Source: Polyangiaceae bacterium
Lineage (GTDB): Bacteria; Myxococcota_A; Polyangia; Polyangiales; Houyiibacteriaceae
NCBI GenBank assembly: GCA_027009115.1
Contig: JALVDI010000105.1
Coordinates: 1 to 41,650 of the forward strand
DNA: 41,650 nt
Direction: 5' to 3'
In this document: in pieces, positions 20,682 to 25,580 of the stretch
Numbering within the stretch: position 1 is the stretch's first letter
Layout of the letters: each line of letters begins with the position of its first letter
The notes under the pieces: model-generated
Databases searched by the model: none
Told to the model about the DNA's origin: nothing
What the model saw: only the letters and a program-made list of their open reading frames with translations
Made by a program: the position numbers and the translations under genes

Positions 20682-23600
20682 TCAGGGCGCTGTGTCCGAG
20701 CAGCAGCGGAAGCCGACGTTGGTGAGCTGGAAGACGTCGTCGGCGACCGTGAAGTCGAAGTCGCAGCGGAGCCCGTTGGAGGGGTTGTTCATGCTTCCGC
20801 CCCGCAGCGGGTTCACCCCGGCGCTGCGCGCCTGCATCCACTCCTTGACGTTGCCGCTGAGGTCGTAGATGCGGGAAGAACCGCCGTGGCTCGCGTAACA
20901 CATGGGCAGCGAGCGCGTCGCCAACACGAGGTCGTCGTCCGGCGGTCCGGCCACCGGGTCGTAGTCGTTGCCGTTGCAGGTGTTGGGCTGGTACGTCGTG
21001 CAGGAGCTCCCGTAGGCCCAGGTGCAGCTTCCGGTCGAGCTGGCGCAGGCGCGCTGGAACTCCGCCTCGGTGCACAGCCGCATGCCGGCCGCGAGGCAAG
21101 CATCGCGCGCTTCCGGGTAGGTGACCTGGGTCCACGGCATCACGTCCGGTCGTGAGCAGGAGCGCGCCGCCGACGCGCCGGACGCGACGGCCGTGGCGTC
21201 TGGGCGGGAGGCCTCGTAGGTGTACATCCAGAACGTCGACCCGCCCTGGGTCACGCGGACCATGTCCTCGACGACGTAGCTCGGGTTGGGGCCCGGAGTG
21301 TCTTTCGGTTCGTCGACGAGCCCGTCGCAGTCGTTGTCCTCCCCGTCGCAAACCTCGGTGCCGGGGGTGCCTGCGGGCGGCGCGTTGCAGGTGACGCCGG
21401 TGCCACCGGCGGCACACACGATGGAACCCGTGCGCCGACAGCTTCCCGTACCGTTGGAGCACACGGTCCCCAGACCCAAGGGGAGGAAGGGCTCGTCGAC
21501 AGCGCCGTTGCAGTCGTTGTCGAGGCCATCGCACCGCGTCTCGGTGGCCTCGTAGGTCGCCGGGTAGTCGCAGGTCCAGCCCCCAGCACCCGCGCAACGC
21601 GGACTCGTGCCGGCGCACACTCCGCTCGTGAGGCAGAAGTTCGACGGCGGCGTGATCCCCTCGTCCGTTCGCCCGTCGCAGTCGTCGTCCACGCCGTTGC
21701 AGGCTTCCGAGCCGTTGAAGTCGCAACGGTACTCGCAACCGTTCGAGGTGTCCCCGTCGGCGTCCCAGAAGCCGTCCTCGCAGGCCACGAGAGTGCAGCT
21801 CCCCGAGCGGCACTCGGCGAAACCGCCCGCGAAGCTGCAGACGTTGCCGCACATGCCGCAGTTGTTGACGTCGTTGCTGAGAAAGTTCTCGTCCGTGCTT
21901 CCGTCGCAGTCGTCATCCAGCCCGTTGCAGCTCTCGATATTCGGTCCGACGGAGCCCATGCACACGATCGCGCCCGCGACGCAGGCTTCGGTGCCGGCGC
22001 GGCACTCGCCCGTGGAGGTACCGCAGGAAGCGCCGCCGCCGGGGTTGCCCTCGTCGACCAAACCGTCGCAGTCGTCGTCTCGGCGGTTGCAAGTCTCCGT
22101 CGCCGGGGTCGCGGGAGTGCAGGCGTATTCACAGCCGGTCGCCTCGATCCCGTCGATGTCGTGGAACCCCTCCTCGCAAGCGCCGAGCTCGCAGGCACCC
22201 GCCGCACATGCGGCGCCAGCGTGCGCAAAGCGGCAGGTGCGGCCGCAGCTTCCGCAGTTGTTCACGTCCGTGTCGAAGTCGAAGTCCTCGTCGACGCTCC
22301 CGTCGCAGTCGTTGTCCCGGAAGTCGCAGTTCGAGTCGTCGTCGGCGGTAGGTAGGCAACGGTACTCGCAGCCGTTGGCCGGGTCGCCGTCCAGGTCGAA
22401 GAACCCGACATCGCAGCGGTCGACGCCGCAGACGCCGCCGGTGCAGACGCCGAAGGCCCCCGGCGGGGCACAGGCTACCCCGCACCCGCCGCAGTTCTCG
22501 ATGTCCGTGGCGGTGTCGATGCCCTCGTCGACCAGGCCGTCGCAGTCGTCGTCCAGGTCGTTGCAGATCTCCTCCCGCCCTTCGGCGCAGGCCGCGTCTC
22601 CACCGGTGTCGGTGCCGGCGTCGGTGGTCGCGGCGTCGCGCCGAGCGGCGTCAACTCCGCCGGCATCTGCCGGTCCACCGTCCGCCCCGGCGTCCTCGCA
22701 GTCCACGCAAAAGGGCTCGACGTCGCAGCCGGCGCTAGCGAGCAGGAACACCGCGCCGAGCCCCACGGCCGCCGCGCGGCCCACTGCTTTTGGGAGACGT
22801 CGCCGGCGCCGGAGGGCGATCAGCCCCACCAGCAGCAAGAACGCGAGAGGGCCGCCGGTCGACCCCGCACCCCCGCCGAGGCCACCCACCGTGCAGGCAC
22901 AGCCGCCGCCTCCCGCCGCCAACAGCCGGGTGCGCTCGTCGTCGCTGGCGCCGGCGTCCACCCCCGCGTCGATCCCGGCGTCGGCCTCCGAGCCGCCAAC
23001 GCACTCGCCGTCACGGCAGACCTGACTGTCGGGGCAATGCACGTCGAGGCAAGGGTCCGGTTCGCAGTCCCCGCTCAGGGGCGCGCAGACCTGCCGCGGG
23101 GGACAGCGCACGCCGACGCATCGATCGTCGGTGCAGCTTCCGTCGGCAGGGTCGCAGACCTCACCGCGGCCACAACGCACATCGGTGCAAGGGTCATCGA
23201 CACACGCGCCCTCGCGGCAGCGCTGGCCGGCCCCGCACTCCACGTCGGCGCAACTCCCGATGCAGGTCCCGCGGCGGCACGCCTGATCGGGTGGGCACGC
23301 CGTGGTCGCGCAGGGGTCGTCGGCACACTCGCCGGTCGTGAAGTCGCAGAGCTGGTCCTCCGGGCAACCGAGGGCCCGGCAGCTGTCCTCGACGCAGGTA
23401 CCGCTGTTCGGCTCGCACACCGTACCCTCGCTGCACGCCACCCCGTCGCAGGGGAAAGTGCACTCGTTGTTCTTGCACACGCATGTCGGCGCGCTGGGGT
23501 CGTCGGAGCAGAGCACTTCACCGTCGCGCTCGAGGGTCTGGGCGCCGCAGGCCGCGTCGTCGCAGGCGTCTGCGACACAGAAGCAGCTATCGCCCTCGAC

Positions 23601-25580: not shown

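What the first reader, a model, noticed from the sequence alone, without database searches (positions are those of the whole stretch)
20682..25580. Two surface proteins fused in frame through a MYXO-CTERM tail and a lipoprotein signal
The first half ends in a complete MYXO-CTERM-like tail (22797-22913), which should be terminal. The frame then runs straight into a lipoprotein-like signal (22725-22784) and a second Cys-rich protein. The Arg codon CGA at 22800-22802 would be TGA after one C-to-T change, and GTG starts follow. Either a stop was lost recently, giving a true fusion, or stop readthrough, coupled start or a sequence error is involved. If both signals work, the product would be cleaved and anchored twice.
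Basis: partly seen in the sequence, partly recalled or inferred. Interest (0 to 1): 0.65.

Follow-up and report, generated by a model that had tools for sequence, protein, structure and literature searches.

The report
Conserved two-in-one bacterial surface protein
Two partner surface proteins of a myxobacterium-like organism are made as one continuous chain, joined by a membrane hairpin that carries a cutting-and-anchoring signal on each side; the same joined form is conserved in many relatives, so it is a real arrangement that probably yields two anchored proteins from one gene, not a sequencing error or a freshly lost stop.

Summary
Window 20682-25580 (-) is one 1632-codon frame: Sec signal, VWA, MopE-type repeats, a MYXO-CTERM-like tail (GGGGCAC, transmembrane helix, RRRRR), a 7-residue loop, a lipoprotein-like signal (SAG|C), more MopE repeats and an FGE-like domain. 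Its closest relatives in three other genera are all fused, two with the same downstream citrate synthase gene. In the order I found 46 fused pairs (29 genomes, 8 families) and 20 split pairs. Split pairs start the second protein with ATG/GTG, often overlapping the first gene's stop; 16 of 46 fused copies have no ATG, GTG or TTG there, so their second half must come from one long chain. Hairpin dN/dS is 0.20-0.54 in ten diverged pairs. Both cysteine motifs persist, and the genome encodes a myxosortase (MrtC), LspA and Lgt. Most likely reading: a translational fusion whose hairpin is cut out by myxosortase and LspA, leaving two lipid-anchored proteins in 1:1 ratio. Fusion and conservation are shown; processing is inferred. 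Internal sorting tags are known (HVO_0405, MXAN_5598); a widely conserved tag paired with a second lipoprotein signal is a new variant.

The parts
20682..25580 (-). whole fused coding sequence A+B, 1632 aa plus stop
   Evidence: GGAGG upstream of ATG 25580
25518..25580 (-). N-terminal Sec-type signal peptide MTRWMLVSLSVLGLCTQVEAQ of protein A
   Evidence: sequence; cleavage type inferred
22923..25580 (-). protein A up to the tail: weak VWA domain (about aa 29-136, below Pfam cut-off), MopE/PF11617 repeats, CxC-rich repeats, Asp/Ala/Gly linker
22797..22922 (-). internal MYXO-CTERM-like tail: GGGGCAC motif, transmembrane helix, RRRRR
   Evidence: conserved in alignment A3; helix in AF2 model
22893..22901 (-). 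CAC, Cys pair of the tail (expected lipidation/myxosortase site)
   Evidence: Cys columns at least 90% conserved among 33 fused copies
22776..22796 (-). short loop LPKAVGR between the two hydrophobic segments, expected cytoplasmic
   Evidence: loop with flanking Arg has net positive charge in all 46 fused copies
22728..22784 (-). lipoprotein-like signal VGRAAAVGLGAVFLLASAG before Cys; GTG codons at 22784 and 22766 lack a Shine-Dalgarno-like site
22725..22727 (-). lipobox-like Cys, expected N-terminal residue of mature protein B
   Evidence: invariant in alignments A1, A2, A3
20685..22727 (-). protein B: Asp-rich linker, MopE repeats, C-terminal FGE-sulfatase-like domain

Best explanation
This is a conserved translational fusion of two partner surface proteins, A (VWA + MopE repeats + MYXO-CTERM) and B (lipoprotein with MopE repeats + FGE-like domain). 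One ribosome makes one chain. A is exported by its N-terminal Sec signal. The MYXO-CTERM helix stops transfer, the Arg-rich loop stays in the cytoplasm, and the second hydrophobic segment re-enters as a lipoprotein signal, so A and B both end up outside the inner membrane joined by a helical hairpin (topology inferred). Myxosortase (here MrtC) would cut at the A-side Cys, and Lgt/LspA would lipidate and cut at the B-side Cys. The hairpin is discarded, leaving two lipid-anchored proteins in 1:1 ratio (processing inferred). The fusion replaces the overlapping-gene coupling seen in the split pairs.
For: Shown: one open frame. 46 fused and 20 split pairs across the order; the window's own clade is 4 of 4 fused (98% support). 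Citrate synthase gene next door in the relatives from G003 and G006 (L036, L037). All 20 split pairs have ATG/GTG starts, 18 with a Shine-Dalgarno-like site; 16 of 46 fused copies have no start codon of any kind and only 4 have a start with such a site. Hairpin dN/dS 0.20-0.54 in ten diverged pairs. 19 different junction lengths, all in frame. G-1 before the B-side Cys in 45/46 fused copies; A-side Cys columns at least 90% conserved. Loop net charge +2 or more in all 46. AF2 gives two helices with a short turn. MrtC above cut-off, one LspA and four Lgt-family matches in the genome. A and B distances correlate, r = 0.86, 0 of 1000 permutations as high.
Against: No proteomic or biochemical evidence of cleavage here. 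The fused copies' B lipobox is loose: only 15/46 fit [LVI][ASTVIG][GAS]C and 36/46 fit PS51257, against 10/20 and 16/20 in split pairs, so LspA cleavage after an internal, non-N-terminal signal is uncertain. The first Cys of the A motif is missing in a few copies (L036, L044), though another Cys remains. AF2 confidence is moderate (pLDDT 75-84 in the helices, pTM 0.29). The pair counts were selected by motif patterns that require both cysteines. Some fused copies keep a possible internal start (e.g. L033, L041).
Confidence: 0.6

Rival explanations
1. Uncut fusion: the hairpin stays as a two-pass inner-membrane anchor (or only one side is cut) and the MYXO-CTERM motif is a relic. A and B remain tethered as one molecule.
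For: No cleavage data. The B-side lipobox of fused copies is looser than the usual consensus. Loop and hydrophobic segments are less conserved than A and B in most pairs.
Against: The Gly/Cys motifs on both sides persist over deep divergence in 46 copies, which a plain two-helix anchor would not need. Myxosortase is present, and an internal tag of a comparable sorting system is cut in HVO_0405 (PMC7157517).
Confidence: 0.25
2. Two products by translation: besides the long chain, B is also made from an internal start between the Arg run and the lipobox.
For: The window has in-frame GTG codons at 22784 and 22766. A few fused copies keep an ATG (L033, L041). Split relatives use overlapping starts.
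Against: No Shine-Dalgarno-like site at the window GTGs. 16/46 fused copies have no start codon at all. ATG count in the region is 7 against about 10 expected from codon usage, so it is not enriched.
Confidence: 0.1
3. Recent loss of a stop codon or a sequencing/assembly error in this genome only.
For: CGA at 22802-22800 is one change from TGA. The genome is a fragmented assembly (702 contigs).
Against: The closest relatives and dozens of paralogues are fused in the same way, also in single- and two-contig genomes. A second fused copy exists in the same genome (L031).
Confidence: 0.03

Closest known systems
MXAN_5598 of Myxococcus xanthus (internal MYXO-CTERM; Guo, Haft and Wall 2025, PMC11980579)
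   Same: A MYXO-CTERM tail in the middle of a long surface protein; the authors suggest fusion of two genes and processing of the N-terminal part.
   Different: Its C-terminal half is a beta-barrel/OmpA protein and it is described as atypical. Here the second half carries a lipoprotein signal of its own, and the arrangement is conserved in many loci and families.
HVO_0405 of Haloferax volcanii (central archaeosortase tag; PMC7157517)
   Same: Fusion of two formerly separate genes with a central tripartite sorting tag, shown to be cut by ArtA.
   Different: Archaeal, a different enzyme and motif, described as a strain-specific fusion. No second, opposite-facing lipoprotein signal is mentioned in the passages read.
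MYXO-CTERM / myxosortase system (TraA, MrtX; NF040593, NF040594)
   Same: Cys motif, transmembrane helix, Arg run; cognate protease MrtC in the genome.
   Different: The tag is internal, not C-terminal; processing not tested here.
Cytochrome b/c1 polyprotein FbcH of Bradyrhizobium (from memory; not found in the library)
   Same: One chain cut at an internal export signal into two membrane-associated proteins.
   Different: Signal peptidase I, respiratory proteins, a single cut, no sorting tag.

Membership tests
MYXO-CTERM protein | short motif with invariant Cys, then transmembrane helix, then Arg-rich stretch | tested here: met
   GGGGCAC, PLAFLLLVGLIAL, RRRRR at 22922-22797
MYXO-CTERM protein | tag lies at the C-terminus | tested here: not met
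   about 704 residues follow in frame
MYXO-CTERM protein | N-terminal export signal | tested here: met
   MTRWMLVSLSVLGLCTQVEAQ read from the translation; not scored with a predictor
MYXO-CTERM protein | a myxosortase in the genome | tested here: met
   L151 1480-2457 (-): NF040594 MrtC 257.5 bits, cut-off 195
MYXO-CTERM protein | cleavage and surface display | not testable with these tools
   needs biochemistry
Bacterial lipoprotein (protein B) | positively charged n-region, hydrophobic h-region, lipobox ending in Cys | tested here: met
   SAGC fits PS51257 as recalled; 36/46 fused copies fit; strict [LVI] at -3 not met in the window
Bacterial lipoprotein (protein B) | signal at the N-terminus of the translated protein | tested here: not met
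   the signal is internal in the fused frame; it is N-terminal in the 20 split relatives
MopE / PF11617 repeat proteins | PF11617 matches above the gathering score | tested here: met
   90.3 and 83.8 bits in the two halves, cut-off 27
FGE-sulfatase domain (PF03781) | match above the gathering score | tested here: met
   43.6 bits, cut-off 23.3; formylglycine-generating activity not tested
VWA domain | match above the gathering score | tested here: inconclusive
   VWA_2 22 bits against cut-off 27; DxSxS motif DDSGSMG present

The most novel reading that the evidence does not exclude
A bacterial polyprotein strategy for lipid-anchored surface proteins: two intramembrane proteases facing opposite ends (myxosortase and LspA) excise a transmembrane hairpin from one chain to release two lipid-anchored partners in fixed 1:1 ratio. 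Fused and split forms have interchanged several times, and related junctions with other partner proteins arose elsewhere (L132, L096).
Probability: 0.45. Interest if true: 0.75.

Novelty: new variant of a known kind. Interest (0 to 1): 0.55.

Why it matters
C-terminal sorting tags are defined by being terminal. A widely conserved set of internal tags, each followed directly by a lipoprotein signal, implies that both processing systems act on one polytopic precursor, which is directly testable. It would explain how partner surface proteins are kept stoichiometric, and it warns annotation pipelines that such proteins are neither single lipoproteins nor single MYXO-CTERM proteins. Fused and split paralogues in one genome (for example G044: L185 against L061-L063) give a ready comparison.

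Tried and rejected
Recent stop loss or sequencing error: rejected by relatives. Internal start as the general source of B: rejected for 16 of 46 copies. Single origin of the split state on the B tree: rejected by the AU test (p 9.6e-85), with the caveat that the group was named after the tree was seen; polarity (fused first or split first) was not determined because the tree is unrooted. NCBIfam hits for the whole protein (GldK, SenA) are far below cut-off and the 62-aa tail alone hits nothing. No solved-structure relative of the FGE-like domain by sequence. Literature searches for bacterial polyproteins with internal lipoprotein signals found nothing relevant.

Full report
What is there. The frame 25580-20685 on the minus strand is open for 1632 codons. 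ATG 25580 is preceded by GGAGG and followed by a Sec-type signal peptide. The first half (A) has a weak VWA match with the DxSxS motif, PF11617 (MopE) repeats and Cys-rich repeats, then an Asp/Ala/Gly linker; the second half (B) has PF11617 repeats and an FGE-sulfatase-like domain. Between them lies LAAGGGGCACTVGGLGGGAGSTGGPLAFLLLVGLIALRRRRR-LPKAVGR-AAAVGLGAVFLLASAG-C. That is a complete MYXO-CTERM-like tail, a short basic loop and a lipoprotein-like signal.

It is not recent and not an error. A search of 58 related genomes found the same frame, without stops, in many of them. I fetched 80 loci and found 66 A-B pairs with both motifs: 46 fused, in 29 genomes of 8 families of the order, and 20 split, in 16 genomes. 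The window groups with L037 (G006), L032 (G002) and L036 (G003), all fused, with 98% support on the B tree. The downstream citrate synthase gene is conserved next to L036 and L037. The window's own genome has a second fused copy, L031. Fused copies also lie in single- and two-contig genomes (L185 in G044; L183 and L184 in G182). Where the window has its CGA codon the relatives' frames run on without a stop, mostly through an Arg run of their own.

How B is made. In the split pairs protein B always has its own ATG or GTG, with a Shine-Dalgarno-like 4-mer in 18 of 20, and in several cases the start overlaps the stop of A as ATGA or GTGA. In the fused copies 16 of 46 have no ATG, GTG or TTG at a usable place between the Arg run and the B-side Cys, only 7 have an ATG (about 10 expected from codon usage), and only 4 have a start with a Shine-Dalgarno-like site. 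The two window GTG codons have none. So the long chain is the general source of B. The hairpin region evolves as coding sequence: dN/dS is 0.20-0.54 in ten diverged pairs (the eleventh pair is identical there). The distance from the Arg run to the B-side Cys takes 19 different values from 18 to 47 residues, so many length changes have kept the frame. This is weakened by the fact that fused copies are defined by being in frame; at least five fused/split changes are needed on the tree as drawn, and at least three on its well-supported branches.

The signals are kept. In alignment A3 (33 fused junctions) the invariant columns are two Gly before the A-side Cys, one Arg of the Arg run, and Cys-x-Val with two further Cys on the B side; the two A-side Cys columns, a second Arg and the Gly before the B-side Cys are at least 90% conserved. 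Gly stands at -1 of the B-side Cys in 45 of 46 fused copies against 14 of 20 split ones (Fisher p 0.002). The permissive lipoprotein pattern is met by 36/46 and 16/20, but the strict lipobox by only 15/46 and 10/20. The loop with its flanking Arg is net positive in all 46, as expected for a cytoplasmic turn. AlphaFold2 on A3 gives two helices (31-48, 53-71) around the Arg run, with pLDDT 75-84 there and no reliable packing (pTM 0.29). The genome encodes the myxosortase MrtC (257.5 bits, cut-off 195), one LspA match and four Lgt-family matches.

A and B are partners. Pairwise distances of A and B correlate at r = 0.86 (0 of 1000 permutations as high). In L064 the two genes are separate and in reverse order. 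On the B tree the split copies do not form one clade (AU p 9.6e-85), so the state has changed more than once. The tree is unrooted, so direction is open.

Mechanism. The best-supported reading is a translational fusion whose membrane hairpin is removed from both sides, by myxosortase at the A-side Cys and Lgt/LspA at the B-side Cys, giving two lipid-anchored proteins in 1:1 ratio. Fusion, conservation and the presence of the enzymes are shown; topology and cleavage are inferred. The main rival is an uncut or half-cut tethered molecule.

Known precedents. Guo, Haft and Wall (PMC11980579) state that internal MYXO-CTERM motifs occur in rare cases and discuss MXAN_5598 as a possible gene fusion whose N-terminal part is processed. 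HVO_0405 of Haloferax is a fusion with a central archaeosortase tag that is cut (PMC7157517). New here are the wide conservation, the pairing with a second, opposite-facing lipoprotein signal, and fused and split forms side by side. Similar junctions with other partners were seen in L132 (a second half with a lipoprotein-like signal and a VWA-like stretch) and L096 (a PF13557-type, likely outer-membrane protein after a signal-peptidase-I-like signal).

Limits. The pair set was found with motif patterns that require both cysteines, so it cannot count losses of either. Genomes are mostly fragmented assemblies. No expression or proteomic data were available.

Noticed in passing
L064 (G049:C40) 2943-8768: The two partner genes are separate and in reversed order (B upstream of A) on the same strand.
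   Followed up: partly
L132 (Archangiaceae bacterium LZH) 6755-13471: A MopE/MYXO-CTERM-like protein is fused in frame to a different second half: lipoprotein-like signal TGC and a VWA-like stretch by eye (no Pfam match).
   Followed up: partly
L096 (Deltaproteobacteria NC_groundwater_1649) 2-13798: A very long MopE protein runs through a helix plus Arg run into a signal-peptidase-I-like signal and a PF13557-type, likely outer-membrane protein, reminiscent of the described MXAN_5598.
   Followed up: partly
G000 (L223-L226): Four Lgt-family matches in one genome; the acyltransferase for MYXO-CTERM cysteines is unknown, so the extra copies are candidates.
   Followed up: no
window 21607-23025 and 23037-24863 (+): Long antisense open frames opposite the fused gene, probably shadows of GC-rich codon use.
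   Followed up: no
window 25512-26540 (+): Divergent alpha/beta-hydrolase-like gene whose frame overlaps the start of the fused gene; its true start is probably further downstream.
   Followed up: no
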